Source: Dehalococcoidia bacterium (GTDB lineage: Bacteria > Chloroflexota > Dehalococcoidia > UBA2979). From it: 64,000 nucleotides of DNA. Shown here in pieces: positions 48,507 through 64,000 of the stretch. Within the stretch, counting starts at the first letter, position 1, and each line of letters opens with the position of its first letter. A program made the position numbers and the translations under genes. The notes below the pieces were generated by a model. The model made no database searches, had not been told where the DNA came from, and was given only the letters and a program-made list of their open reading frames with translations. Location: positions 62,001 through 126,000 of the forward strand of contig SHYS01000001.1 of NCBI GenBank assembly GCA_009692685.1, in the 5' to 3' direction.

Positions 48507-49625
48507 GTGACCATCGGGGGCGGGCCCGCGTTTCTTTTCGGGCACGGGCTGCCGAACGTGCTGCCGCTGGCCGGACTGCACATCGAGCTGGGCTGTCATC
48601 CCGGTCCCGCGCACGGCTACACCGTGCCGCTGTGGTACGTCAGCCCCCTCGACGAGCAAGTGGCAACGAGGTCCGGCGCCGGTCTCTTCGACCGCTCCTA
48701 CTTGGGCCAGCACTACGTCACCGGCGAGCGCGCCGCCGAGGTGCTGGGGGCGGTGCTTGCCACCGACCCTGCGCGCGTGCCTGTGGGCAGCGTCACCCGC
48801 GCGATCGCCTGTCGCGAGGACAGCACCGTCCTCGACCTGCCACTCCTCGCCCACCTCGATGAGGGCCGCTGGTTCCTACTCTGCGGCGCCGGCGGACACG
48901 AGCTCGCGCATGCGATCGAGGCGGCTGGTGAGGCCGTCGGCGTGCAGGTCCACGATCGCTCGATGTATGTCGCCGTGCTATCGCTGCAGGGCCCGCGCGC
49001 GCGCGACGTAGCCGCCGATGTGCTCGGGCGCGAGCTGGTCGACACCGTTTCGCGAGGCCACACCCGCGAGTTCTTGTTCGGCCTGCACCGCGCAGCGCTG
49101 TTTGGCGCCTCCGACGTTGGGGAGGATGGACTCGTACTCGTCGTCGAGCCCGGTACCGCCGCCGATGCCTGGCGCGCGCTGGTCGCTGCGGGCGCAACCT
49201 CGGCGGGCTTGGCGGCGCACGACGCCCTGCGCCTTGAAGCGGGTACCCTCGAGGCGCCCCGCGAGACGCCTCGCCCGGCCACCCCGTACGCGGCCGGCCT
49301 CCAGGAGCTCGTCCACCTCGATGATCTCGAGGGCGGCGCTCGCACCTTCACCGGGAGCGGAGCGCTCCTGGCTGCGAAGCCACCGGAGCGCCGCCTGGCC
49401 GCGCTTCGCCTCGACGGTCCGAGGCTGGCGAAGCCCGGCTCGCGAGTACGGGTCGCCGGCTTCGATATCGGCGCGTGCGTAGCCGCCGGGTGGTCGTCCG
49501 TGCTCGATGCGCCATTGGCGCTAGCCTACCTCGCGCCTGCGCTCGACACGCTCGAGGTGGACTGCGCCGGCATCTGGCAGCGCGCGACGCGGGTCACGAT
49601 CCCCCTCGCCAGCCTCGCGACGTAA
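48507..49625 (+). CDS. GcvT/YgfZ-family aminomethyltransferase-like protein
   Basis: A 372-residue folate-binding protein fold: VATRSGAGLFDRSYLGQHYV, TGERAAEVLGAVLATDP and the C-terminal GWSSVLDAPLALAYLAPAL match the GcvT family. The N-terminal 40 residues before that are atypical and the exact start (GTG 48507) is uncertain. No other glycine-cleavage genes are nearby, so it may be a stand-alone demethylase-like paralogue or a YgfZ-type Fe-S protein. Confidence 0.75.
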   Translation: MTIGGGPAFLFGHGLPNVLPLAGLHIELGCHPGPAHGYTVPLWYVSPLDEQVATRSGAGLFDRSYLGQHYVTGERAAEVLGAVLATDPARVPVGSVTRAIACREDSTVLDLPLLAHLDEGRWFLLCGAGGHELAHAIEAAGEAVGVQVHDRSMYVAVLSLQGPRARDVAADVLGRELVDTVSRGHTREFLFGLHRAALFGASDVGEDGLVLVVEPGTAADAWRALVAAGATSAGLAAHDALRLEAGTLEAPRETPRPATPYAAGLQELVHLDDLEGGARTFTGSGALLAAKPPERRLAALRLDGPRLAKPGSRVRVAGFDIGACVAAGWSSVLDAPLALAYLAPALDTLEVDCAGIWQRATRVTIPLASLAT

Positions 49626-50950: not shown

Positions 50951-51775
50951 GTGGATGAATACCTGCGCGCGATCTTTCTTGGTGCGCTGCAGGCACCCAC
51001 CGAGTTTCTTCCGATCTCCTCCTCAGCACACCTGTTCCTCGCCGAGCGCCTGCTGGGGGAACGTGCGTCGTCGTTGACGTTCGACGTCGGCCTGCATACC
51101 GGCACGCTGCTCGCCGTGCTGCTCTACTTCCGCGCCGAGTGGTTCGGCTTCGCCCGGGCGCTCGTCGTCGACGTCACCAGTGGAGGTGGGCCGGGACCAC
51201 GGTGGAGTATCGAGTCCCGCCTGCTTCTCGCCATTGCGTGGGGCACGCTGCCAGCCGTAGCCGCCGGGTATCTGCTGAACGACGCTATCGACGCATACGC
51301 GCGGTCGGTGTCCGTCATCGTCGGGACGCTCATCGGGTTCGGCGTGCTCCTGGAGGTGGCGGATCGCCGTCCGGAGGCCCGCGGGCTCGGGGCCATGACT
51401 TACGCGGCGGCGTTCCTGGTGGGCATGGGCCAGGCGATCGCCCTCGTGCCCGGCGTGTCGAGGTCGGGGGTGACGATCAGCGCCGCGCGCGCGCTCGGTT
51501 TCGATCGAGGCACGGCGGCACGGTTCTCGTTCCTGCTCTCAGCACCGGTCGTCTTTGCCGCCGCCGTCCTCGAACTGGGTTACGCCCTCGTCAGCGGCGC
51601 GCCGGTGGCGTGGGGCCCGATGCTGGCTGGCGCGGCGACAGCGGCGATCGTGGGCTGGTTCGTGATCGCGGGACTGCTCTCGTTCCTGCGGACGCGGAGC
51701 CTGCGTGTGTTCGTCTGGTATAGAATCGCGCTCGGTCTGGCGGTCCTCGCCGGAGCCGCGATGGGCGCGCTCTAG
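50951..51775 (+). CDS. uppP: Undecaprenyl-diphosphatase
   Basis: UppP (BacA) recycles the lipid carrier of cell-wall synthesis. The 274-residue membrane protein has LQAPTEFLPISSSAHLFLAE, where the usual QGxTEFLPISSSGH carries Ala for both Gly, and a second motif LVPGVSRSGVTISAARALGF with the catalytic Ser/Arg. About eight hydrophobic segments. Start at GTG 50951. Confidence 0.92.
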   Translation: MDEYLRAIFLGALQAPTEFLPISSSAHLFLAERLLGERASSLTFDVGLHTGTLLAVLLYFRAEWFGFARALVVDVTSGGGPGPRWSIESRLLLAIAWGTLPAVAAGYLLNDAIDAYARSVSVIVGTLIGFGVLLEVADRRPEARGLGAMTYAAAFLVGMGQAIALVPGVSRSGVTISAARALGFDRGTAARFSFLLSAPVVFAAAVLELGYALVSGAPVAWGPMLAGAATAAIVGWFVIAGLLSFLRTRSLRVFVWYRIALGLAVLAGAAMGAL

Positions 51776-51855
51776 TCGGGCGGATGCCCGCACAGGTGAA
51801 GCGACCCTGCCAACCACGGCAATGGCAACACACCTCGGAGCACTTCGGAGGCGAG

Positions 51856-52671
51856 ATGGTCCTCGAAAGTTTCAAGATGGACGGCAAGGTCGCCATCGTC
51901 ACCGGGTCCGGACGCGGGCTCGGGAAGGCGATGGCGAAAGCCCTCGCGGCCGCGGGCGCGAACGTAGTCTGCGCCGCTCGCACACCGGAGCAGATCGAGG
52001 CAACGGTCGCCGAGATCACGGGCGACGGCGGCACGGCCATCGCCGTGCCCACGGACGTGACGAGTTCGGCCCAGATTGACGCTCTCGTCGCGCGCGCCGT
52101 CGAGCAGTACGGCCGACTCGACGTGATGATTGCCAACGCCGGCGGTGGCGGCGGTCCGCAGGATGTCGAGTTCTGGGAGTACCCGGACGACGCCTTCGAC
52201 ATGGTCCTGGCGACCAACCTGAAGTCGGCCTTCTACAGCGGCCGCGCGGCCGCGAGGCAGTTCGTCAAACAGGGCGAAGGTGGCGTCATCGTGAACGTTG
52301 CTTCCGGAACGGCCCTTCGAGGTAACCAGCAGTTCGCCTACCCCACGGCCAAGGGCGGCGTGATCTCCCTGACTAGGTCCGAGGCGACATTGCTCGCGAA
52401 GCACAACATTCGCGCTAACTGCATCGTGCCGGGCTACATCAACCAGCGCCCGCCGCGAGACGAACAGGAAGCGGAGATTCGCCGCAACCGCGGCATTCGG
52501 GTGCCGATTCGGCGGCTGGGCGACTACTGGGAGCTGGGGCCGCTGGCGCTCTACCTCGCCTCGGATGCGTCGCGCTACGTGAACGGCGAGATGTTCATCA
52601 TCGATGGTGGCGGGCTCGCCGGTGGGCTCGCGCCGGTCACCTTCGCCCCCAAGCACGAGATCGGAGCCTGA
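51856..52671 (+). CDS. Short-chain dehydrogenase, canonical (pair 1, active subunit)
   Basis: A 271-residue SDR with TGSGRGLG cofactor motif, NAGGGGG, the catalytic Ser in VASGT and YPTAK with both Tyr and Lys. ATG 51856 follows CGGAGG. The C-terminus GEMFIIDGGGLAGGLAPVTF is shared in style with the SDR at 54746. It is followed after two bases by an SDR-like gene that lacks the catalytic Lys, suggesting an obligate active/pseudo pair. Likely substrate: a hydroxyacyl-CoA, from the enoyl-CoA hydratase neighbour. Confidence 0.88.
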   Translation: MVLESFKMDGKVAIVTGSGRGLGKAMAKALAAAGANVVCAARTPEQIEATVAEITGDGGTAIAVPTDVTSSAQIDALVARAVEQYGRLDVMIANAGGGGGPQDVEFWEYPDDAFDMVLATNLKSAFYSGRAAARQFVKQGEGGVIVNVASGTALRGNQQFAYPTAKGGVISLTRSEATLLAKHNIRANCIVPGYINQRPPRDEQEAEIRRNRGIRVPIRRLGDYWELGPLALYLASDASRYVNGEMFIIDGGGLAGGLAPVTFAPKHEIGA

Positions 52672-52673
52672 TT

Positions 52674-53492
52674 GTGACCACACCAGAGACCCTGGCCGCC
52701 CTCGCCGCACTGCCCGGCCCGCAGCATCTCCGTCTTGATGGCAAGCGCGCGCTCATCGTCGGCGCAGAGTCGCCCGTCGGCGCGGCGATCGCGCGTGGTT
52801 ACGCCGAGGCGGGCGCGGAGATCGCGCTCGCCGTGCTGAAGCCGGACGAAGCCGTCGTCTCCGCCAAGCGTCTCCAGCGAGACCTCGAGGCGCTGGGCGC
52901 GAAGTCGACCGTCTACGTCATGGACGTGCAGCTCGGCAAGAACGTGCAGGTCACCACAAGGCAGATCGCAAAGGAGCTCGGCGGCGTCGACATCGCCGTG
53001 TGCGCCTCGGACCTCTTTCTCGGCAAGCCCATCGGCAAGACGACGGACTCCGAGTTGCAGCAGGTGATGGCCTACAACTTCAACGCGCACTTCTTCGTCG
53101 CGCGCTCCGCCTCCGAGGAGATGCGTCGAGGCGGCTCGGGCGGACGCATCGTGCTCGTATCGCACGTCCTCGGCGAGCGCGGCCTGCCGAATACCGCCGC
53201 CTACGGAGCCGCGCATGGCGCCACGCAGCAGCTCGTGCGCTCGCTGTCGCAGGAGCTGGCGCCGGAGGGGATCACGATCAACGGGATCTCGACGGGGTGG
53301 ATGGACTGGATGTCGGACCGCCTCGACCCCGCGGACGAGGACGCCGGTCGCGCCGTGCGGTTCACTCTGCCTCGGCGCGCCGGAACGCCGGAGGATGTTG
53401 CGCCGCTCGCGCTGTACCTCGCGGGCTCTGGTACCGGCAACGTCACCGGCCAGGTCTTTCACGTCGACGGCGGCGTGACCCAACACCTGTAG
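52674..53492 (+). CDS. SDR-fold pseudoenzyme (pair 1, inactive subunit)
   Basis: A 272-residue SDR-fold protein with altered key residues. The TGxxxGxG loop reads VGAESPVG (Pro replaces the second Gly), and the active site YxxxK reads YGAAH (His replaces Lys). The Ser of VSHVLGERG is kept. GTG start lies two bases after the upstream SDR stop. By analogy with BbsC of the BbsCD dehydrogenase in anaerobic toluene degradation, it may be a structural partner. Confidence 0.85.
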   Translation: MTTPETLAALAALPGPQHLRLDGKRALIVGAESPVGAAIARGYAEAGAEIALAVLKPDEAVVSAKRLQRDLEALGAKSTVYVMDVQLGKNVQVTTRQIAKELGGVDIAVCASDLFLGKPIGKTTDSELQQVMAYNFNAHFFVARSASEEMRRGGSGGRIVLVSHVLGERGLPNTAAYGAAHGATQQLVRSLSQELAPEGITINGISTGWMDWMSDRLDPADEDAGRAVRFTLPRRAGTPEDVAPLALYLAGSGTGNVTGQVFHVDGGVTQHL

Positions 53493-53561
53493 GTCGTCGT
53501 ATCGACGGCGTACAGTTAGGTCGCGGGAACGACATAAGTCGGGCGTAGCGGAAGCTCAATC

Positions 53562-53627
53562 ATGCTCTGGACCATCGCGGTCATCGCCGTGCTCGTGCGT
53601 GTGATCCAGGGCCATCACGTCTTGTAG
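53562..53627 (+). CDS. 21-residue microprotein resembling lmo0937/DUF5670 ends
   Basis: A 22-codon frame begins MLWTIAVI and ends LVRVIQGHHVL. Family lmo0937 (DUF5670) proteins are about 50 residues with the same MLWTIAVI start and a VIAV..LIRLIxG end. The middle, including the Gly-rich turn, is missing here, as if deleted between the two IAVI repeats. GCGGAAG upstream is a weak Shine-Dalgarno. Confidence 0.45.
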   Translation: MLWTIAVIAVLVRVIQGHHVL

Positions 53628-53738
53628 CGGCGTTTCGCTCGACTCGGGCGAACCACCTCCGCAGCGGGCCGAGGTGCCTCACCTCGTCTGTACATCACGC
53701 GTACAATCCCGGCGCGCTGGCAGCCGAGGAGGTGACGC

Positions 53739-54659
53739 ATGACGAGCCAGTACGAAACGATCATCGTCGAGAAGGAGCGCGGCCGCGCTCGTATCACCCT
53801 CAACCGACCCGAGAAGCTGAACGCGCTGTCGAGGCGGCTCCAGGCCGAGCTCGCAGCCGCGCTCCACGATGCTGACGAGGACACACGCGTCCACTCAATC
53901 ATTATCCGTGGCGCCGGGCGCTCGTTCTGCGCCGGTTACGATCTGACCCCGGAACGCCGCATCGAGGGCGAAACGCTCGACGAGCGCGACCGCTACACGG
54001 AGGTCTACCGCACCTCGCAGGCCTTCGATGACGACGTCTTCCGCATGGAGGGTGCCCAGCGCGACCGCATGACCATCTTCGACATGCACAAACCGGTGAT
54101 CGCGCAGGTGCACGGGTACTGCGTCGCGGGCGGCACGGACCTCGCGCTGGTGTGCGACATCGTGATTGCCGCGCAGGACGCGCACATCGGATTCCCGCCG
54201 GTGCGCGCGATGGGCGGGCCGCCCGCCCATATGTGGACGTACCTGGTGGGGCCGCAGTGGGCGAAGTACATGCTGCTGACCGGCGAGTTCGTCACCGGCA
54301 TCGAGGCGGAGCGCATTGGCCTCGTCTGGAAGTCGGTGCCGCTGGACGACCTCGAGGAGACCGTTGAGGAGCTGGCGGATCGCTTGGCGATGGTGCCGAC
54401 GGACTTGCTCTCCGGCAACAAGCGCTCGGTCAACCTCGCGATGGAGCTGATGGGTGCGCGAACCATGCAGCGCCTTGCCGCAGAGATGGACGCGCGTATG
54501 CATGTCTCGCCCTCGATGGAGGAGTGGCGTTCCCGCAATCGCGAGGAGGGGCTGAAGTCCGCCCTTGAATGGCGCGACGGCCGCTTTGCGAACCCGGAGA
54601 TGCGCCGCAAGTGGCAGGACGAGCACTGGCCCGAGGGTCCGCGGAGTGCGCAGTCGTAA
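53739..54659 (+). CDS. Enoyl-CoA hydratase/isomerase-family protein (ECH1)
   Basis: A 306-residue crotonase-fold protein, longer than usual. RITLNRPEKLNALSRRLQAE, GAGRSFCAGYDL, and VHGYCVAGGTDLALVCDIVI are the CoA/oxyanion-hole blocks. The first catalytic Glu position is Asp (GGTDLAL) and the second is replaced (FPPVRAMGG), so simple hydration is unlikely. ATG follows GAGGAGG. It lies between two SDR pairs. Confidence 0.88.
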   Translation: MTSQYETIIVEKERGRARITLNRPEKLNALSRRLQAELAAALHDADEDTRVHSIIIRGAGRSFCAGYDLTPERRIEGETLDERDRYTEVYRTSQAFDDDVFRMEGAQRDRMTIFDMHKPVIAQVHGYCVAGGTDLALVCDIVIAAQDAHIGFPPVRAMGGPPAHMWTYLVGPQWAKYMLLTGEFVTGIEAERIGLVWKSVPLDDLEETVEELADRLAMVPTDLLSGNKRSVNLAMELMGARTMQRLAAEMDARMHVSPSMEEWRSRNREEGLKSALEWRDGRFANPEMRRKWQDEHWPEGPRSAQS

Positions 54660-54745
54660 TAGGCATGTGTGGTCGCGCGCGGGGCCGACGTGTCCCGCCG
54701 CGCAGCCCCCGCTATTCTCTCTAGTCACAGTGCGGAGGAAGCCAC

Positions 54746-55543
54746 ATGACCATCAACGGAAAGTTCAACCTCGATGGTAAGACCGCCCTCGTGACCGGCG
54801 GCGGTTCTGGCCTCGGCCGTGCGATGTCGCTTGCGCTTGCTGACGCGGGCGCGAACATCATCGTCTCGGCGCGCCGGTTCGACCCGCTCGAGGAGACCGC
54901 GAGCCTAGTACGAGCGAAGGGCCGCCGCGCCCTCGCGATATCGGCCGACCTCACGGTGTCCGAGCAGGTCAACGCGATGACCGAGCGGACGATCGCGGAG
55001 TTCGGCCGCGTCGATATCCTCGTGAACAACGCCGGAATCTCGGAGGCTGGTCGAGGCAAGACGCTGCCGGAGCTGACCGACGAAGAGTGGCGCATCGGCA
55101 TGGACGTCAACCTGACGACGGCGTTCTACTGCTCGCGGGCGATCATCAATCACTTCCTGGTGCACGGTGGCGGGAAGATCATCAACATCACGTCGGGGTG
55201 GGGCTTCCGAGGCGGCCGTGGGAACTTCATGTACGCGGTGGCCAAGGGCGGCGTGATCCAGCTGACAAAGGCGCTGGCGATGACCTACGCGCGCGACAAC
55301 GTCACGTGTACCTGTATCGCGCCCGGACTGATTCCGAAGGGGATGCCCCAGGACAACCGAGACCGCATCGGTGCGGTGCAGCCAATCGGCCGCGTGGGTT
55401 ATCCGGTCGAGATGGGCCCGCTGGCCGTATTCCTCGCTTCCGACATGTCGAACTACATGTCGGGCGAAACCGTGCTGCTCGATGGCGGCTCGATCGCCGG
55501 GGGTGTCACGCCCGCCGGCCTGGTCCCCGTCGCGGAGGGGTAA
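54746..55543 (+). CDS. Short-chain dehydrogenase, canonical (pair 2, active subunit)
   Basis: A 265-residue SDR with TGGGSGLG, NNAGIS, Ser in ITSGWGFRG and YAVAK. The C-terminal GETVLLDGGSIAGGVTPAGL parallels the SDR at 51856, suggesting duplication. It is followed by a second SDR pseudoenzyme gene at 55602. Confidence 0.9.
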   Translation: MTINGKFNLDGKTALVTGGGSGLGRAMSLALADAGANIIVSARRFDPLEETASLVRAKGRRALAISADLTVSEQVNAMTERTIAEFGRVDILVNNAGISEAGRGKTLPELTDEEWRIGMDVNLTTAFYCSRAIINHFLVHGGGKIINITSGWGFRGGRGNFMYAVAKGGVIQLTKALAMTYARDNVTCTCIAPGLIPKGMPQDNRDRIGAVQPIGRVGYPVEMGPLAVFLASDMSNYMSGETVLLDGGSIAGGVTPAGLVPVAEG

Positions 55544-55601
55544 GGCACATCCTAGCACCCAGCTGAGATTCCGCGCCGCGAGGCGACCTGAGGAGACATT
55601 G

Positions 55602-56411
55602 ATGACCATTCCACCGCCCGACGAATCGGACCTGATGGGTTCTAACCCGTTCGACCTGAGCGGGCGTAACGCCATCGTAACTGGCGCGACTGGCCCACTC
55701 GGCCGGGCGCTCGCCACCGCGCTGGCCGAGGTGGGCGCGAACGTCTCGGTCACCACGGCGCACGACAGCGCCGAGGAGGAGACGGCCGCCAACTCGATCC
55801 TCAACGAGTGCTGGAGCCACGGCCGCAAGGGCGTCGCACGCCGCGTCGACCTGACCGACCCCACGTCGTTTGAGGCCGCGCTGGCGGCCATCGAGGCGGA
55901 GGTCGGGCCGACGCACATCCTCGTCAACGCGGTACACGGCGCGAACATCAAGCCCGTCCTCGACGCCTCGGTCGCCGAGTGGCGGCGCGAACTCGAGCGC
56001 AACGCCACCTCGGTGTTCGTGGCAAGCCAGGCCGTCGGCAAGCGGATGGTCGAGCGCGGCTACGGTCGCATCGTGAACCTGGTCTCCATCCTCCACGATC
56101 GAGGCGTGCCAAACGCGGCCATCTATGGCGCGTCGCAGGGCGCCGTGCTCGGTTTCACAAAGTCGCTCGGCCTCGAGTGGGGCCGCAGCGGTGTGACGGT
56201 GAACGCCCTTGGACTGGGCTTCTTCGATGACATCCCCGGCATCCAGGGCGACGAGCAAGTCCACGCCGTGCTGGAGCGCTACATCCCATTGCGCCGTCTC
56301 GGCAAGGTCACGGACCTGCAGGGGCCGCTGATCTACCTCTGCTCTGACCACTCGGCGTTCGTGGATTCCGAGGTGTTCGTCGTCGACGGCGCGATCCAGG
56401 TCCACGCCTGA
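55602..56411 (+). CDS. SDR-fold pseudoenzyme (pair 2, inactive subunit)
   Basis: A 269-residue SDR-fold protein. The cofactor loop is TGATGPLG (Pro for the second Gly, exactly as in the other pseudo-subunit), and the active site reads YGASQ, with Gln for Lys. Ser in LVSILHDRG is kept. ATG 55602 follows GAGGAG. Sharing of the Pro change with the protein at 52674 implies common descent of the pseudo-subunits before the pairs duplicated. Confidence 0.86.
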   Translation: MTIPPPDESDLMGSNPFDLSGRNAIVTGATGPLGRALATALAEVGANVSVTTAHDSAEEETAANSILNECWSHGRKGVARRVDLTDPTSFEAALAAIEAEVGPTHILVNAVHGANIKPVLDASVAEWRRELERNATSVFVASQAVGKRMVERGYGRIVNLVSILHDRGVPNAAIYGASQGAVLGFTKSLGLEWGRSGVTVNALGLGFFDDIPGIQGDEQVHAVLERYIPLRRLGKVTDLQGPLIYLCSDHSAFVDSEVFVVDGAIQVHA

Positions 56412-56554
56412 CGCAGCCCACGGACGACGTCGCTGACACCACCCCGACCGAGGGCTTCCTCGACGGCTGGCTGCGCCCCGCCCAGACAAGCCTCGGTGCT
56501 CCCGGCCCTTCCTGGCCCGGCTCAGGCATCCGGCGCCCTGACCAGCCGCTACCG

Positions 56555-57037
56555 ATGTTCGCGAGCGAGCCTCGAGCGGCGGCGGCACGCCTCACCGAGG
56601 TAGCGTCGCGCCCACTCGCGAGCTTTGGCCTCCGCGCGGCCGGGCTCGCTATCGACCTGGCCACCATCTGGGTCGGCCTGATCGTGATCGTCTTCATCGT
56701 GGGAGGCGAGGCGATCCTGGGTGACCCCGAGACCAACCCCCTGGCGCAGGCGGCCTTCGCGCGCGCCTCGCTGGTAGGGTGGCTCTTCCAAGTTTGCTAC
56801 CACTGGCTGTGGAACAGCCTCGGCTGGTCGCCCGGCAAGCGAGTGTTCGGTCTGCGGGTCGTGACCCTGGAGGGTCGAGCCCCCGGAGCCGGTCGCGGCT
56901 TTGCGCGGACGGCTGGCACGTTGCTCTCGCTGACGGTGTTCTTCGTCGGCTACCTGTGGGCGGCGTGGGATCGTCGCAGCCAGACGTGGCACGACCGGAT
57001 CGCCGGGACGTACGTGGTCAAGATCGAGGAAAGCTAA
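56555..57037 (+). CDS. RDD-family membrane protein
   Basis: About 160 residues with the RDD layout: PLASFGLRAAGLAIDLATIW, membrane segments, WNSLGWSPGKRVFGLRVVT, WAAWDRRSQTWHDRIAGTYV. The open frame extends upstream without stop to the SDR stop (Pro-rich, FLDGWLRPAQTS), but I see no good start codon there; an unusual start could add up to 48 residues. Function unknown. Confidence 0.8.
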   Translation: MFASEPRAAAARLTEVASRPLASFGLRAAGLAIDLATIWVGLIVIVFIVGGEAILGDPETNPLAQAAFARASLVGWLFQVCYHWLWNSLGWSPGKRVFGLRVVTLEGRAPGAGRGFARTAGTLLSLTVFFVGYLWAAWDRRSQTWHDRIAGTYVVKIEES

Positions 57038-58012: not shown

Positions 58013-59032
58013 TCAGGCGCCCCAGGGCAACTGGCGCGGCTGGAGGATCTCGCGCACCTGGCCGTCGGCGACGAGGAGGATCTGGTCCACCGAGCCGTAG
58101 GTGGCCGGGCTCATTCCTCGGAGGGCCTGCGTAACCAGCTCGCTATCGAGGTGTCCAACGACATCGAGGAGGACCAGCACGCCGTAATCCACGGTGGCAT
58201 CGGCTGCGGCGGCGGCGCGCTGCTCGGTCGCCCGACGCACGGCACGACGCAGCCCACGACGGACGCGCGTGCCGTCATCGGCATCCGCCATCGAGCCGGG
58301 GCGGGGGGCCGAGACGATCGTCAATCCCGCTGGCTCGTCGGTCGAGAGGCGCGAGACCGACCAGTAGTCGTGGACTTCGACGTTGGTGACTTCGCCGGAC
58401 TCCATGACCGTCGCGCGGTCGCGAATCCTCGTCATGATGATATCGAGCTCCGCCGCCTCATCCGGGAGGCGCAGCAGATCGCGAGCGTCGAGGTGGAAGA
58501 CGCCCTTCAGGCCCTCGGACAGGTGCGCCCACTCCACGGACAGAGGTCCCGTCACCATCATGTAGGCGCCCTCTGGTTCGGTCTTCGCGAGGCGCAGCAG
58601 CACAGGGATACGCAGCTCACGCCGCTGTCCCGGGGCAAGCCCCGACAGCCCGTGTCCGAGGAGCAATCGAAACTCCGAGCGCTGCGGCTCGTCCGGCGGG
58701 AATTCAGCGTTGGGCGGCGCCCAGACGACATACGCACCGCTGTCGTCGCGGGCGGCCAGATCAGCGCTGACCAGCCGCTCCATCGTGTCGATAGCGGGCG
58801 CGCGAGGTACTGCGTCGTCCCAGAGCGTTGCGAATGTGACTCCTACTACGCGGTCGCGCTGGCGCAGGCGGGCGTCGAAGGGGGCGGGGTCGCCCTCGAC
58901 CGGGCGGAACGTGCGGAAGAAGCGCTGGCCGAGCCACTCGGCCGCCATGCCCACGGCCAGAGAACGAAGTCGCGCGGCCGCCTCCTTGCGCGGGGCTGAA
59001 GCGCTGTCGGCGGGAATCGAGGAAGTCGTCAT
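58013..59032 (-). CDS. Hypothetical protein with basic C-terminal region
   Basis: A 339-residue protein with no family I recognise. The N-terminal part contains LAVGMAAEWLGQRFFRTFRP, the middle PVLLRLAKTEPEGAYMMVTG, and the region around 265-285 is strongly basic (RVRRGLRRAVRRATEQR). No signal peptide. Upstream gene is a four-helix membrane protein; downstream is a GNAT. Confidence 0.6.
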   Translation of the reverse strand: MTTSSIPADSASAPRKEAAARLRSLAVGMAAEWLGQRFFRTFRPVEGDPAPFDARLRQRDRVVGVTFATLWDDAVPRAPAIDTMERLVSADLAARDDSGAYVVWAPPNAEFPPDEPQRSEFRLLLGHGLSGLAPGQRRELRIPVLLRLAKTEPEGAYMMVTGPLSVEWAHLSEGLKGVFHLDARDLLRLPDEAAELDIIMTRIRDRATVMESGEVTNVEVHDYWSVSRLSTDEPAGLTIVSAPRPGSMADADDGTRVRRGLRRAVRRATEQRAAAAADATVDYGVLVLLDVVGHLDSELVTQALRGMSPATYGSVDQILLVADGQVREILQPRQLPWGA

Positions 59033-59543: not shown

Positions 59544-60311
59544 CTAGATGTTCGAGCGGGACTGGCCACCGTCGACGTTGATGGTAGCGCCCACCATCCA
59601 CGAGGCGCGCGGGGACGCGAGGAACACGACCATCGCGGCGACCTCCTCGGGGCGGCCGAAGCGCCCGGCGGGAATGTCCTGCTCGATGAAGCGCGCCATG
59701 GCCTCTGGCTGCTCGGCGAGGCGTCGGGCCCATGAGCCGCCCTCGAAGGCGATCGAGCCGGGCGCGACGTTGTTGACGCGAATCCCCTCGCGAATCCAGT
59801 CGCGGGCTAGCGCCTTGCTCATCGCGATCTGCGCCGCCTTGGTCGCGTTATACGCGCTACCACCTCCGGACTCACGACCGTAGATCGAGGAGATGTTGAC
59901 GATCGCTCCCTGCCCGGACGTTGCGAGGTGGGGTCGTGCGGCCTGCGACATCCGCAGCGCCGACACGACGTTGAGCTCGAACGATTCCTCGAAGGCGCGG
60001 GCGAGGTCTGGCTCCCGCGAGCTGCCGCCCGCGTTGTTCACTAGGGCATCGATGCCGCCGAAAGTGCTGACTGCCGCCTCCACCACGCGCGTCGTGTCCG
60101 CCTCACTTGTTACGTCGGCGACCACACCTTGCACCTCGGCACCGGACGCGGTGCCCAGCGCTCGCACTTCCTCGACGGCCGCCTCCAGGGTGCCGGCGCC
60201 GCGAGCGCAGATCGTGATCCGCGCCCCCTCGAGGGAGAACCCGCGCGCGATCGCCAGTCCAATGCCACGGCTCGCTCCCGTCACAATGACCGAGCGTCCC
60301 GTCAGTCCCAT
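59544..60311 (-). CDS. Short-chain dehydrogenase (SDR5)
   Basis: A canonical classical SDR: TGASRGIG, NNAGG, ISSIYGRESGGGSAYNATKA (Ser, Tyr and Lys all present) and the C-terminal VGATINVDGGQSRSNI. From ATG 60311 it has 255 residues. A longer form starts upstream at 60344 and reads through an 11-base G run, coding GGGV. The ATG at 60311 avoids that run. Confidence 0.88.
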   Translation of the reverse strand: MGLTGRSVIVTGASRGIGLAIARGFSLEGARITICARGAGTLEAAVEEVRALGTASGAEVQGVVADVTSEADTTRVVEAAVSTFGGIDALVNNAGGSSREPDLARAFEESFELNVVSALRMSQAARPHLATSGQGAIVNISSIYGRESGGGSAYNATKAAQIAMSKALARDWIREGIRVNNVAPGSIAFEGGSWARRLAEQPEAMARFIEQDIPAGRFGRPEEVAAMVVFLASPRASWMVGATINVDGGQSRSNI

Positions 60312-60322
60312 GTCCACTGCCA

Positions 60323-60333
60323 CCCCCCCCCCC
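60323..60333 (-). repeat. Homopolymeric G(11) tract before SDR5
   Basis: Eleven consecutive G on the minus strand lie between an upstream ATG (60344) and the likely start ATG (60311). Such tracts slip during replication and can switch frames. Only the short N-terminal extension would be affected, so a regulatory or transcript effect is more likely than gene inactivation. Confidence 0.7.
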
Positions 60334-60426
60334 GTCGTCGTCAAAGCCGCCGCATGCTCGCAGGTCGTGCGCCGGGGAGCCAGCGTGTACCCGTGACCCT
60401 AGGTAGTGACGTAGTACAGTCGGTCA

Positions 60427-61179
60427 ATGCCGCACGTCACCGTCTCCATCGAGCGCTACGTGGCCACACTGACTCTCGATACGCCGGGAGGGCTCGCGAC
60501 GCGGGCCTTTGTGGAGGACCTCGCTGCCGCGGCGGCCGACGTCGCGGCCCTCACCGATGAGGTTCGCGCCGTAGTACTGACCTCAGCAGGCGCCGACTTT
60601 TGCGTCGGCTGGGGCGCCGACCTGCTCGATTCACCGGGAGCGACGCTCGCTGCGGGCGTGGGGTTTGACGCGCTGGCGGCCGTGCCGCAGCCCGTGATCG
60701 CCGCCATCGGCGGCCGTGCCTTTTCGGCAGGGCTGGAGCTCGCGCTGGCTGCCGACCTACGACTGGCCGCCGATGGCGCTCGCTTCGCCATGCCCGATAC
60801 CGCCGAGGGCCGCCTCCCGCGCGGCGGCGGCACGCAGCGTCTGCCACGCGCGATCGGCCGCGCGAACGCCCTGCGCCTGCTCTTGCTCGCCGAAGAGATC
60901 GACGCCGGTGAGGCGCGGAGGATCGGCCTCGTGTCTCGCGTCGTCCCCGCCTCCGAACTGGCGAGCGCCGCGCGAGCCCTTGCGGACGCGATCGCCCAGC
61001 GCGGGCCGATCGCTACGCGGCTGGCGAAAGAGGCGGTCAATCGAGGTACGGAGATGCCACTACAGCAGGCGCTACGGTACGAGCTCGACCTCACGATCAT
61101 CCTCCAGACCACGTTCGACCGCGCGGAGGGCGTGCGGGCGTTCGCGTCGCGCACGCCGCCCGTGTTCCTCGGCCGTTGA
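60427..61179 (+). CDS. Enoyl-CoA hydratase/isomerase-family protein (ECH2)
   Basis: A 250-residue crotonase-fold protein: TSAGADFCVGWGADL, IGGRAFSAGLELALAADLRL (first catalytic Glu kept) and MPDTAEGRLPRGGGTQRLPR (second Glu replaced by Asp). It is divergent from SDR5. An isomerase or lyase rather than a classic hydratase is possible. Confidence 0.87.
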   Translation: MPHVTVSIERYVATLTLDTPGGLATRAFVEDLAAAAADVAALTDEVRAVVLTSAGADFCVGWGADLLDSPGATLAAGVGFDALAAVPQPVIAAIGGRAFSAGLELALAADLRLAADGARFAMPDTAEGRLPRGGGTQRLPRAIGRANALRLLLLAEEIDAGEARRIGLVSRVVPASELASAARALADAIAQRGPIATRLAKEAVNRGTEMPLQQALRYELDLTIILQTTFDRAEGVRAFASRTPPVFLGR

Positions 61180-61570: not shown

Positions 61571-61812
61571 AGGTCGAATTCGAAGTCGAAGAAGTCTGGA
61601 CCATGTTCAACGCCGTCCTCGACGAGCTCGTCATACTGCCCGGCGTGAAAAAGGACAAGAAGGACATCGCTGCGCTGCGCCGCTGGCGCACCGACGAGAT
61701 GAGCCCGGGCTCGGATGCGATGAAGCTGCTCGCGCAGAAGGTGAACCGCGAGATCCAGCGTGAACACCAGCGCGCCGAGGTGTCCCCCATCAAGAAGCCG
61801 GACTGGCTGTAG
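61567..61812 (+). CDS. Small uncharacterised protein B (tandem paralogue)
   Basis: An 81-residue protein, MKVEFEVEEVWTMFNAVLDE, VKKDKKDIAALRRWRTDEMS. It aligns with the preceding product over the first 45 residues (VDEV/VEEV, then an AIRAWR/ALRRWR segment). The ATG overlaps the stop of A. The two may form a hetero-oligomer. They lie between two ECH genes. Confidence 0.65.
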   Translation: MKVEFEVEEVWTMFNAVLDELVILPGVKKDKKDIAALRRWRTDEMSPGSDAMKLLAQKVNREIQREHQRAEVSPIKKPDWL

Positions 61813-61828
61813 GGTCGGCGGGCGGCTG

Positions 61829-62551
61829 ATGGCCTTCATCGAGGCGGACCGCCAGGGCGACGTGCTCTGGCTGACGTTGAACCGGCCCGAACGCCTGAAC
61901 GCCGTTCACCTCGCGATGCGTGATGAGCTCTGGACGATGTTCGAGCTCATTCGCCTCGACCCCTCGATCCGCGTGGCGGTTCTTCGCGGCGCAGGCGACC
62001 GGGCGTTCTCGGCCGGCGCGGACATCCTCGAGTTTGGCACCGCTCCATCGGTGGTGGCCTCGCGTGAGGCACGCCAGCAGCGCGATATCTGGGGGGTCAT
62101 GTCGACCCTGCCGATCCCGCTTGTCGCGGCCATCCACGGCTTTGCCTACGGGGCAGGATTCGAGATGTCGATGTACTGCGACCTGCGTGTCTGCGCAGAG
62201 GATGCTCGTTTTGCGCTCCCGGAGGTCACCCTCGGGTATATCCCCTCGGCCGGTGGGACGCAGACCGTCGCGCGCCACACGTCGCGGTCTGACGTGCTCC
62301 GTCTCGTCACGACGGGTGAGCCCATGACGGCCCCCGAGGCGTTTGAGGCAGGATTGGTGCACGCCGTCGTCCCTCGTGCGGAACTCGAGACGACCGCGCG
62401 CGTATGGGCACAGCGCCTTGCCTCGTTGCCCCCGAGCGCAATCAAGGCCGCCAAGCGCGCCGTGATCGAGGGCATCGACATGCCCCTGTCCCACGCCCTT
62501 GAGTTCGAACGCGTCCTGGCCGCCGAGGTGGCGATGGGAGTAGGCGCATGA
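61829..62551 (+). CDS. Enoyl-CoA hydratase (ECH3), catalytic residues intact
   Basis: A 240-residue crotonase: LTLNRPERLNAVHLAMRDEL, GAGDRAFSAGADILEFG, IHGFAYGAGFEMSMYCDLRV (first Glu) and LPEVTLGYIPSAGGTQTVAR (second Glu). Both hydratase glutamates are present, making it the best candidate here for genuine enoyl-CoA hydration. Its stop overlaps the next gene (GCATGA). Confidence 0.92.
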   Translation: MAFIEADRQGDVLWLTLNRPERLNAVHLAMRDELWTMFELIRLDPSIRVAVLRGAGDRAFSAGADILEFGTAPSVVASREARQQRDIWGVMSTLPIPLVAAIHGFAYGAGFEMSMYCDLRVCAEDARFALPEVTLGYIPSAGGTQTVARHTSRSDVLRLVTTGEPMTAPEAFEAGLVHAVVPRAELETTARVWAQRLASLPPSAIKAAKRAVIEGIDMPLSHALEFERVLAAEVAMGVGA

Positions 62552-63078
62552 CCGAGCACGCCTCGCTAGCGGCCAGCGGGCAGGGTCGCCGACGCGTGCC
62601 GGGCTGGCTGGTGCCGTTCGGGCTGCTGCTCGTGAGCTTCCTGAGCATCGGTGCGGTCTTCTGGGGTCATTTTGTCGCTCATCCCGGTATTCGCGTATTC
62701 GAATTCGATGCCGGTCCGGTCGCAGGCCTGGAGATCGGGCGTGTGCGCCCCTTCCCGGAGTTCAACCTGTACCTCGTTGGGCTGGCGGACGGCCGAGTCC
62801 GAGTGATCGACGGCAAGGTGCACTCCTCGCAGTGCCTCGTGATCTGGAATCCTGACGACGAACGTGGTCGTGGCTTCAACCCGCACGGCACCCTCGGTAC
62901 CTACGAGGACCACTGTACGGGCGCGTACTGGGCCGTCACAGGGAACGAGATCGACCCTGCGGGGCGCCCTGTGGAACCGCTGCGCACGTTCGAACTCGCG
63001 TACAAGACGCTGCCGGACGGCCAGCAACACATCTTCGTCGAGGTCATCGGGCGGGATCGCGTCACGCCCTCGCGGTAG
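62548..63078 (+). CDS. Membrane-anchored Rieske-like protein without cluster ligands (1)
   Basis: A 176-residue protein with a signal anchor (about 19-42) and an extracytoplasmic domain. The domain ends like a Rieske fold: SSQCLVIW, then YEDHCTGAYWAVTG and DPAGRPVEPLRTF. Aligned to Rieske CxHxxC and CPCHG boxes, the four Fe-S ligands are absent while the two disulfide cysteines appear kept. It overlaps ECH3 by ATGA. A paralogue with the same pattern follows. Confidence 0.6.
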   Translation: MTEHASLAASGQGRRRVPGWLVPFGLLLVSFLSIGAVFWGHFVAHPGIRVFEFDAGPVAGLEIGRVRPFPEFNLYLVGLADGRVRVIDGKVHSSQCLVIWNPDDERGRGFNPHGTLGTYEDHCTGAYWAVTGNEIDPAGRPVEPLRTFELAYKTLPDGQQHIFVEVIGRDRVTPSR

Positions 63079-63205: not shown

Positions 63206-63684
63206 GTGTACAGAGTGGTTGCTTGCTCGCGGTAGCCCTGTTCGCGCTGGGGGCGATCTTGGTGATCGCGTTCGTCGCGTTGCAGGGGCGGGGCGGGGGG
63301 AGGATCGCGCTGGGGTCACCCGAAGGACTGCGCCCGGGCTCCGTCGTCTACCACGCTACCGATCATGTGTTCGTTATTCGGCTGGTAGACGGCTCGCCGC
63401 TGGTGCTCTCCGACATCGACCCGCACAATCCCCCGGGGCGGCAGACCTGTCGGGTGACGTTCCGACCTGAACTGGGAGGGACGGAAGGCTTGGCGGCCGG
63501 TCGCTTCTTTGATGTGTGCAGCGGGGCGATGTACGACATCGCGGGCCGCAGCGCGAAGGGCGACTGGCTTGACCTTCGCTCGGTCCCGTTCGAGCTGGAC
63601 TCCGAGGGCCAGTTGACGATCTTGGAGGATGAAGCCGCGTTCAATCCCTGGAGGTTGAGCCGGGCAGGGGGTATCGCAGTATGA
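63206..63684 (+). CDS. Membrane-anchored Rieske-like protein without cluster ligands (2)
   Basis: About 155 residues: a membrane anchor (AVALFALGAILVIAFVALQG) and a domain with RQTCRVTF, then FFDVCSGAMYDIAG and DLRSVPFELDSEG. The pattern repeats that of the upstream paralogue: Cys, then F/Y-x-D-x-C-S/T-G-A. AGGAG and GTG 63206 give the best start but lie in a different frame from the body, which is open from TTG 63223, so a small indel may exist near 63215. The stop overlaps the acyl-CoA synthetase ATG. Confidence 0.58.
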
Positions 63685-64000
63685 ACACTGCCGAGTTCAT
63701 CACCATCACCGCGGCAATCGTGCCGGACCGCGTGGGCTTGGTCGACCCCGATGAGCGGGTCACGTTCGAGCAGTTCCAGACACGGGTGAACAAGCTCGCG
63801 CAAGGGCTGCTGGCGATGGGCGTAGGCAAGGGCTCGAACGTCGGCGTCATGTCGGTGAACTCCGTGAAGTTCGTCGAGGCGTACTACGCGACGGCCGCGG
63901 TCGGTGCCACGTTCGTGCCGCTGAACTTCCGGGCGAAGCCCGAGGAGCTCAGCTACATGATTAACACGGCGGACATCGGCACGCTGTTCATCTCTGAGCG
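63681..64000 (+). CDS. Acyl-CoA synthetase / AMP-binding enzyme (5' part only)
   Basis: The window ends after about 107 residues of an ANL-superfamily adenylating enzyme: VPDRVGLVDPDERVTFEQFQ, VNKLAQGLLAMGVGKGSNVG, and AAVGATFVPLNFRAKPEELS. These are typical first-domain blocks of acyl-CoA ligases. ATG 63681 overlaps the preceding stop by ATGA, so it belongs to the ECH3/Rieske-like operon. It would supply CoA esters to the ECH and SDR enzymes. Confidence 0.85.
   Translation, partial: MNTAEFITITAAIVPDRVGLVDPDERVTFEQFQTRVNKLAQGLLAMGVGKGSNVGVMSVNSVKFVEAYYATAAVGATFVPLNFRAKPEELSYMINTADIGTLFISE

What the first reader, a model, noticed from the sequence alone, without database searches (positions are those of the whole stretch)
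51856..56411. Two duplicated active/pseudo SDR pairs flanking a crotonase-fold gene
Each pair joins a canonical SDR (YPTAK, YAVAK) to one that lost the catalytic Lys (YGAAH, YGASQ). Both pseudo-subunits carry the same Gly-to-Pro change in the cofactor loop (SPVG, GPLG), so pseudo-subunits are a lineage rather than accidents. This is the plan of BbsCD in anaerobic toluene degradation, where only one subunit type is catalytic. Here two such modules surround an ECH-like protein that lacks both catalytic Glu.
Basis: partly seen in the sequence, partly recalled or inferred. Interest (0 to 1): 0.8.

Follow-up and report, generated by a model that had tools for sequence, protein, structure and literature searches.

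The report
Duplicated active/inactive dehydrogenase subunit pairs
Uncultured Chloroflexota bacteria carry two copies of a gene pair in which a working dehydrogenase is followed by a look-alike that has lost catalytic parts, and look-alikes whose working partner is gone tend to decay, which suggests that the two proteins form one enzyme.

Summary
Window 51856-56411 encodes SDR1 (active), SDR2 (Lys to His), a crotonase-fold protein, SDR3 (active) and SDR4 (Lys to Gln). In an 80-row careful tree SDR1+SDR3 form one clade (100/99) and SDR2+SDR4 another (98/92); origin of each pseudo-subunit from its own neighbour is rejected. So one active/pseudo pair was duplicated as a unit. In a search for active-type genes in 400 Chloroflexota genomes, 17 of 17 found (14 genomes) have a pseudo-type gene directly downstream; one solitary active-type gene was met elsewhere. 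SDR1 homologues keep Ser, Tyr and Lys in 121 of 121 rows; the pseudo families keep Lys in 2 of 121 and 0 of 121. Of ten pseudo-genes lacking an adjacent active partner, eight have strongly and one partly decayed C-terminal quarters. The crotonase-like gene belongs with the second pair. Best reading: two heteromeric dehydrogenases with scaffold subunits, the plan of BbsCD. BbsD falls outside the active clade (marginal test); whether BbsC shares the pseudo lineage is unresolved (p 0.32). Heteromer formation, substrate and cofactor are inferred, not shown; a mirror-tree test gave no support.

The parts
51856..52671 (+). SDR1 (A1), active SDR subunit: Gly loop 51904-51924, YPTAK 52339-52353, extended C-terminal tail DGGGLAGGLAPVTFAP 52603-52650
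   Evidence: active clade; 121 of 121 rows keep Ser/Tyr/Lys
52674..53492 (+). SDR2 (B1), pseudo-subunit: GAESPVG 52761-52781, YGAAH 53202-53216, C-terminus DGGVTQHL 53466-53489; starts 2 bases after the SDR1 stop
   Evidence: pseudo clade
53739..54659 (+). ECH, crotonase-fold protein of NCBIfam PRK08272; Asp (AGGTDL 54126-54143) and Pro (FPPVR 54192-54206) at the two catalytic Glu positions
   Evidence: (321.8 bits, cutoff 257)
54746..55543 (+). SDR3 (A2), active SDR subunit: Gly loop 54797-54817, YAVAK 55232-55246, tail DGGSIAGGVTPAGLVP 55481-55528
   Evidence: best PDB match BbsD
55602..56411 (+). SDR4 (B2), pseudo-subunit: GATGPLG 55683-55703, YGASQ 56124-56138, C-terminus DGAIQVHA 56385-56408
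   Evidence: pseudo clade
59544..60344 (-). SDR5, ordinary SDR found downstream in many related loci; not part of the pairs (context)
60427..61179 (+). second crotonase-fold gene (context)
61760..62551 (+). third crotonase-fold gene, with Glu at both Glu positions (context)
63681..64000 (+). start of a gene cut by the window end; its relative L021:17120-18841 is an AMP-binding, acyl-CoA synthetase-like protein (context)

Best explanation
The locus encodes two related heteromeric NAD(P)-dependent dehydrogenases, SDR1+SDR2 and SDR3+SDR4. In each, the first gene makes the catalytic subunit (A) and the second a pseudo-subunit (B) that keeps the SDR fold but has lost parts of the dinucleotide-binding and catalytic apparatus; B serves as a structural partner, most likely in an A2B2 tetramer, through a C-terminal region that is mostly kept only while A is present. 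One ancestral A-B pair was duplicated as a unit. The second pair works with the PRK08272 crotonase-like protein, probably on CoA thioesters of 3-hydroxy acids or alicyclic alcohols in a degradation pathway. Shown: gene order, close spacing, residue losses, clades, co-occurrence, decay of most orphans. Inferred: physical complex, stoichiometry, scaffold role, substrate, cofactor.
For: Lineage: active clade 100/99 and pseudo clade 98/92 in an 80-row careful tree; SDR1+SDR2 as one clade rejected (p 5e-6), SDR3+SDR4 rejected (p 1e-11); with motif and tail columns removed the active clade stays 100/99 and the pseudo clade without L054 98/86. Linkage: A1 and B1 adjacent on the same strand in 26 of 26 stretches holding both, median spacing -4, overlapping in 14; A2 and B2 in 32 of 32, median 11.5 (starts chosen by rule). 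Search for A not conditioned on B: 17 of 17 A genes in 14 of 400 Chloroflexota genomes have B directly downstream; without the centre G003, a known carrier, 15 of 15 in 13 of 399 (neighbours). Pairs as units: about 22 kb apart in G005; neither SDR1 nor SDR2 found in G006 and G413. Orphans: 6 B1 and 4 B2 genes without an adjacent A; C-terminal identity to outgroup B sequences 24.4% against 47.7% (B1) and 16.2% against 40.0% (B2), N-terminal part 39.1 against 42.9 and 32.3 against 39.1. Distinct conserved C-termini of A and B. Beyond Chloroflexota: four SDR1 homologues at 66-69% named Gammaproteobacteria or Pseudomonadales and SDR2-family proteins so named; 16 of 119 contig lengths shared between the two lists against a mean of 1.4 (maximum 5) in 80 offset controls.
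Against: No physical interaction was tested or predicted. Distance-matrix correlations over 12 loci show no partner-specific excess (A1-B1 0.85, A2-B2 0.79, B1-B2 0.91). One solitary A2 paralogue without an adjacent B exists in G001, so A may work alone or in trans. Orphan L009 keeps most of its C-terminal region. Nine of the 36 pseudo-clade rows keep both Tyr and Lys, and five of these (L046, L047, L048, P0118, P0119) keep Ser too, so not every B is demonstrably dead; all five have altered Gly-loop and NAG motifs. Orphans keep much of the N-terminal part, so B may have a further role.
Confidence: 0.74

Rival explanations
1. B proteins are separate proteins, for example redox- or ligand-sensing regulators built on a dead SDR fold, encoded next to A for co-expression only.
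For: Lost cofactor and catalytic residues; no direct interaction evidence; mirror-tree gives no partner-specific signal; N-terminal part persists in orphans.
Against: Close or overlapping reading frames and 17 of 17 linkage; decay of the C-terminal part in 8 or 9 of 10 orphans.
Confidence: 0.12
2. B proteins are catalytic in another way, for example with His in place of Lys, or as isomerases or lyases without NAD turnover; the early-branching B proteins with Ser, Tyr and Lys may be ordinary dehydrogenases.
For: Tyr is invariant in the SDR2 family rows (121 of 121) and His dominates at the Lys place (92 of 121); five of 36 pseudo-clade rows keep Ser, Tyr and Lys.
Against: The SDR4 family has Phe for Tyr in 100 of 121 and Gln for Lys in 121 of 121; the Lys place in the SDR2 family also holds Q, A, T, N, C and R; Gly-loop and NAG motifs degraded.
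Confidence: 0.1
3. These genes belong to the BbsCD family itself, with BbsC in the same pseudo lineage and BbsD in the active one.
For: BbsD is the best of 667 PDB matches to SDR3; BbsC is second of 594 to the G333 pseudo-subunit; union of BbsC with the pseudo clade is not rejected (p 0.32); two class III CoA-transferases upstream of the single pair in G217.
Against: Best tree joins BbsC with BbsD (96/81) in a ten-row group of FabG-like SDRs; BbsD with the active clade is marginally rejected (p 0.045); the BbsD chain ends without the extended tail; BbsC was not among the best 60 PDB matches of SDR2, SDR4 or three pseudo-family profiles.
Confidence: 0.2
4. The pseudo genes are decaying copies without function.
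For: They change faster than their partners (mean identity over 12 loci 66.5 against 70.6 and 68.2 against 72.8); orphans decay.
Against: Full length and conserved in sequence, invariant Gln in the SDR4 family, conserved C-termini when paired.
Confidence: 0.02

Closest known systems
[quoted passage not shown]
   Same: One active and one pseudo SDR working together; a hydratase and a CoA-transferase in the same pathway (passages of PMC10818641). Described as a heterotetramer with inactive pseudoenzyme subunits (title seen in that paper's reference list; abstract recalled)
   Different: BbsD lies outside the active clade here (marginal test) and lacks the extended tail; BbsC unresolved; here the pair is duplicated and lies in Chloroflexota and apparently Gammaproteobacteria. 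No bbs operon was looked for
Mitochondrial 3-ketoacyl-ACP reductase HSD17B8/CBR4 (recalled; one search gave listings only)
   Same: Heterotetramer of two different SDR subunits
   Different: Recalled as having two canonical SDR subunits; no sequence compared here
Crotonase subfamily PRK08272 (NCBIfam NF006128)
   Same: The cluster ECH scores 321.8 bits, cutoff 257
   Different: Function of the subfamily is not given by the model; Asp and Pro at the two Glu positions in the cluster members

Membership tests
BbsCD-type dehydrogenase | Adjacent active and pseudo SDR genes | tested here: met
BbsCD-type dehydrogenase | Pseudo-subunit without SDR cofactor and catalytic motifs | tested here: met
   met for SDR2 and SDR4; only partly for nine of 36 pseudo-clade rows that keep Tyr and Lys
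BbsCD-type dehydrogenase | Active subunit in the BbsD clade | tested here: not met
   BbsD groups with FabG-like SDRs, 95/91; BbsD with the active clade p 0.045, a marginal rejection from one BbsD sequence
BbsCD-type dehydrogenase | Pseudo-subunit in the BbsC clade | tested here: inconclusive
   best tree BbsC+BbsD 96/81; union with B not rejected, p 0.32; BbsC on a long branch
BbsCD-type dehydrogenase | A2B2 heterotetramer | not testable with these tools
   only monomer prediction available; both jobs used on monomers
BbsCD-type dehydrogenase | bbs/bss operon (thiolase, acyl-CoA dehydrogenase, glycyl radical enzyme) | not tested
   window ORFs were read by eye only; no search for these families was made
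Classical SDR (PF13561/PF00106) | Pfam match with TGxxxGxG and YxxxK | tested here: met
   SDR1 and SDR3 meet all; SDR2 and SDR4 match the Pfam models above cutoff but not the motifs
Crotonase subfamily PRK08272 | Curated score cutoff | tested here: met
   321.8 against 257 bits
Active enoyl-CoA hydratase | Both catalytic Glu (positions recalled, set by alignment with the third in-window crotonase gene) | tested here: not met
   Asp and Pro in 10 of 10 cluster members read, the window's included

The most novel reading that the evidence does not exclude
A dedicated family of non-catalytic SDR subunits, independent in origin from BbsC, has been maintained as near-obligate partner of one clade of active SDRs through Chloroflexota and, by transfer, Gammaproteobacteria; the pair was duplicated as a unit and joined to a D/P-type crotonase to give a heteromeric dehydrogenase system for degradation of organic acids, a second invention of the pseudo-subunit plan in which losses of Ser, Tyr, Lys and the cofactor loop happened repeatedly in parallel.
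Probability: 0.48. Interest if true: 0.72.

Novelty: new variant of a known kind. Interest (0 to 1): 0.62.

Why it matters
Heteromeric SDRs with a dead subunit are known to this reporter from one pathway enzyme, BbsCD. A wide and duplicated lineage with partly and fully degraded pseudo-subunits, and with genomes in which one partner seems to be lost, makes it testable how a catalytic subunit comes to live with a dead copy of itself. It also warns that some genes annotated 'SDR family oxidoreductase' in Chloroflexota, which genome papers count as catabolic enzymes, are probably not enzymes on their own.

Tried and rejected
Pairwise origin of each pseudo-subunit from its own neighbour: rejected by AU tests. 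The shared Pro as proof of lineage: rejected, the state varies among B proteins. Fold comparison: the SDR4 model (pLDDT 88.8) and the weaker SDR2 model (72.7) match ordinary SDRs; BbsC was not in the 50 rows shown for either, which decided nothing. Plasmid search with SDR2: no match; with BbsD: 73 records, all below 60% identity, 15 listed. Mirror-tree over 12 loci: no partner-specific signal. Promoter and terminator scan of 51600-56700: nothing found, fewer than or like the shuffles. Sister relation of the A and B clades: 98/88 against 12 other SDRs but weak once 17 more SDRs of the same genomes (of 20 fetched, one of them an A2 paralogue) and BbsD are in (71/90; the union is not rejected, p 0.546), so left open. 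The first AU tests left row O_L097 outside the active group by mistake; it is an A2 paralogue, and the tests were repeated with it inside. Rows dropped before trees: 13 named long or redundant rows and a thinning to chosen loci, further thinning, O_L098, O_L094 and the L032 SDR1. In one search, L103 (B1) and L008, L013, L018 (B2) were paired but not used. Pathway identity: the neighbours gave no single pathway.
Full report
WHAT IS THERE. The window carries, on the + strand, SDR1 51856-52671, SDR2 52674-53492, a crotonase-fold gene 53739-54659, SDR3 54746-55543 and SDR4 55602-56411. SDR1 and SDR3 have intact Gly loops and YxxxK; SDR2 and SDR4 have GAESPVG/YGAAH and GATGPLG/YGASQ. SDR1 and SDR3 are 41.1% identical; the other pairs are 27.7-31.6%. 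No genome is held for the window; the nearest relative fetched is Dehalococcoidia MAG contig L001 (85-88% for the four SDRs), so the source is most likely a Dehalococcoidia-type Chloroflexota.

THE RESIDUE LOSSES ARE CONSERVED. SDR2 plus the best 120 of 896 homologues: Tyr 121 of 121; Lys place H 92, Q 15, A 6, T 3, K 2, N 1, C 1, R 1; second loop Gly is Pro in 110. SDR4 plus the best 120 of 1641: Lys place Gln 121 of 121; Tyr place Phe in 100, Tyr in 21. SDR1 plus the best 120 of 5684: Ser, Tyr, Lys, second Gly and Asn in 121 of 121; the extended C-terminal tail fits the pattern in 118 of 120, the two misses being near-variants. Twenty-nine of the listed SDR2 relatives (P0086-P0117 without P0100, P0103 and P0113) are only 209-245 aa long; three bear names, of Pseudomonadota, Gammaproteobacteria and Pseudomonadales. 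All seven of these that were aligned (P0088, P0098, P0104, P0110, P0115, P0116, P0117) lack a stretch of the nucleotide-binding half.

GENE ORDER. A genome-contig scan with the SDR4 family gave 33 loci, 32 of them with genes of this system; L031 (Latescibacterota) had none. Over 50 stretches read (window, L001-L033, L101-L116) there were 33 B1 (SDR2-type) genes: 26 with A1 (SDR1-type) directly upstream, 1 cut by the contig start, 6 without. There were 38 B2 genes: 32 with A2 directly upstream, 2 cut, 4 without. A1-B1 spacing is -11 to 83, median -4, negative in 14 of 26; A2-B2 spacing is 3 to 405, median 11.5; starts were chosen by a rule and the 405 is probably a wrong start. These loci were gathered through B genes, so they cannot tell how often A stands alone. 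The two pairs lie about 22 kb apart in G005 and 26 kb apart on one contig in G414. Only the second pair was found in G006 (L019) and G413 (L027). As far as found, other Chloroflexota have the first pair only (G298, G284, G153, G357, G312, G233, G363), the second with the crotonase (G385, G390), both with the crotonase (G395, G225), or one pair outside both groups (G217, G291, G333). Searches with the active subunits in 400 genomes of the phylum gave 17 A genes in 14 genomes, and each has a B gene directly downstream (neighbours read). The centre G003 was a known carrier; without it the count is 15 of 15 in 13 of 399. At most six candidates per genome were scored, so misses are possible: G357 and G326, which carry A1, were not listed. 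One exception was met elsewhere: a third, solitary A2-type gene in G001. Two hits assigned A by weak similarity only (L002 34%, L106 40%) are not counted.

THE TREE. In a careful tree of 80 rows the active group (32 rows) has support 100/99, the pseudo group (36 rows) 98/92, the SDR2 group 100/100, the SDR4 group 100/96, the SDR1 group 100/97 and the SDR3 group 94/58. AU tests reject SDR1+SDR2 as one clade (p 5e-6) and SDR3+SDR4 (p 1e-11 with, 2e-8 without the G217 pair). Leaving out the motif and tail columns, the active clade stays 100/99 and the pseudo clade without the G217 row is 98/86; with that row it is neither shown nor rejected (p 0.518). With 17 more SDRs of the same genomes and BbsD, the active clade (26 rows, the G001 paralogue included) is 100/98 and the pseudo clade 96/92; with BbsC added the pseudo clade is 92/95, no longer starred. 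Whether the A and B clades are sisters is open. Since A and B genes each split into two groups that stand side by side, the duplication took both genes of a pair. The single pairs of G217, G291 and G333 branch first among the B genes (the others 98/92), as if older than the duplication, but their A genes stand weakly on the SDR3 side (87/47), so their place is not settled. At least 3 changes of state are needed for Lys, 3 for Tyr and 6 for Ser/Thr on the 80-row tree; none of the 44 rows outside the pseudo group lacks any of them. Nine of 36 pseudo rows keep Tyr and Lys: L044, L052, L053 and L054 with Pro for Ser, and L046, L047, L048, P0118 and P0119 with Ser; the NAG and second-Gly motifs are altered in the last five. 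So losses seem to have come in parallel after the two roles had parted; G291 has Met for Lys.

ORPHANS DECAY. Where A1 is missing next to B1 (L009, L011, L012, L022, L113, L116) or A2 next to B2 (L030, L032, L033, L113), B was compared with distant B sequences as outgroups. B1, 18 paired against 6 orphan: residues 16-200, 42.9 against 39.1% identity; from 201 on, 47.7 against 24.4%. B2, 25 paired against 4 orphan: 39.1 against 32.3 and 40.0 against 16.2% (Mann-Whitney p 0.001-0.002 for all four, but L009 and L012 are one genome and L032 and L033 relatives, so the points are not independent). Of the six B1 orphans four are strongly decayed in the C-terminal part (L011, L022, L113, L116), L012 partly (32.4%), L009 hardly (45.5%, within the paired range); all four B2 orphans are strongly decayed. 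No SDR1 orthologue was found in G407, G408 and G415 and no SDR3 orthologue in G410, G411 and G412; completeness of these assemblies is not told, and G002 (L116) was not searched for SDR1. G409 holds, besides its orphan, another A1-B1 pair whose B1 is short in its N-terminal part (L114), and G415 holds an A2-B2 pair elsewhere (L026), so absence of A there is local. I read the pattern as dependence of the C-terminal part of B on A. In SDR tetramers this part lies at a subunit interface (recalled, not computed).

THE CROTONASE. The gene at 53739 is a PRK08272 member. Ten of ten cluster members read (the window's and nine at 57-89% identity) have Asp and Pro in place of the two Glu. It precedes A2-B2 in G385 and G390, where no A1-B1 was found, so it belongs to the second module. 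In L001 2.7 kb lie between it and SDR3, and it is absent from many clusters, for example L007 and L015. Asp may still act as acid or base; loss of hydratase activity is possible but not shown.

NEIGHBOURS. Downstream of the window cluster and of many related loci lie an ordinary SDR and two more crotonases, and in 13 stretches (the window's included) a gene whose one scanned member is AMP-binding. G217 has two class III CoA-transferases upstream of its pair. G217, G291 and G333 have a lipoate/biotin ligase-family gene directly before A, and G217 and G291 an NfeD gene after B. CoA-ester substrates are likely but not established. A paper on SAR202 genomes reports 60 SDR-type proteins in five genomes and proposes that such paralogues turn alcohols into ketones before ring opening (PMC5395668, passages seen); the passages do not mention paired or inactive members. 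A second SAR202 paper holds none of the four terms tried (PMC6946804).

COMPARISON WITH BbsCD. The working plan matches. BbsD is the best of 667 PDB matches to SDR3 but 55th of 671 for SDR1. BbsC is second of 594 for the G333 pseudo-subunit but absent from the best 60 for SDR2, SDR4 and three family profiles. BbsD stands with FabG-like SDRs (95/91), and holding it with the active clade is marginally rejected (p 0.045). BbsC joins BbsD (96/81), on a long branch, and its union with the pseudo clade is not rejected (p 0.32). One sequence of each was available, so independent origin is favoured, not shown. The BbsCD structure paper is not held; its title was seen in the reference list of PMC10818641 (passages), the rest is recalled.

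PRINT SEARCHES. Six searches were seen as listings. In them and in the passages read I saw no report of this system. They cover only the open-licence library.

VERDICT. A real, conserved, duplicated active/pseudo SDR system, probably a heteromeric dehydrogenase. New variant of a known kind.

Noticed in passing
L113 (G415:C1:106000-108800), 896-2415: Two decayed pseudo-subunit-like genes, SDR2-type then (weakly, 38%) SDR4-type, side by side with no active partner.
   Followed up: partly
L151, 7024-8040 (G001:C76): Solitary third active-type gene, 68% to SDR3 and with the extended tail, without a pseudo-subunit next to it; two SDR-like genes on the other strand nearby.
   Followed up: partly
L104:4369-5151, L149:6878-7669, L150:8623-9507: A lipoate/biotin ligase-family gene stands directly before the active subunit in all three single-pair loci; unexplained.
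   Followed up: no
L105 and L106: gcvPA, gcvPB, GcvT and an aminotransferase lie beside the crotonase and second pair in L105, with genes of like size in L106; the window has a GcvT-like gene at 48507-49625 below the GcvT cutoff.
   Followed up: no
window 58013-59032 (-) and 62548-63078 (+): Open frames without a Pfam match; the second belongs to a family in 14 stretches, the window's included.
   Followed up: no
L012:17176-20250: Long protein with NarI-like, Fe-S and CCG domains, of a family found in 12 of the loci compared; possibly an electron-transfer partner of acyl-CoA oxidation.
   Followed up: no
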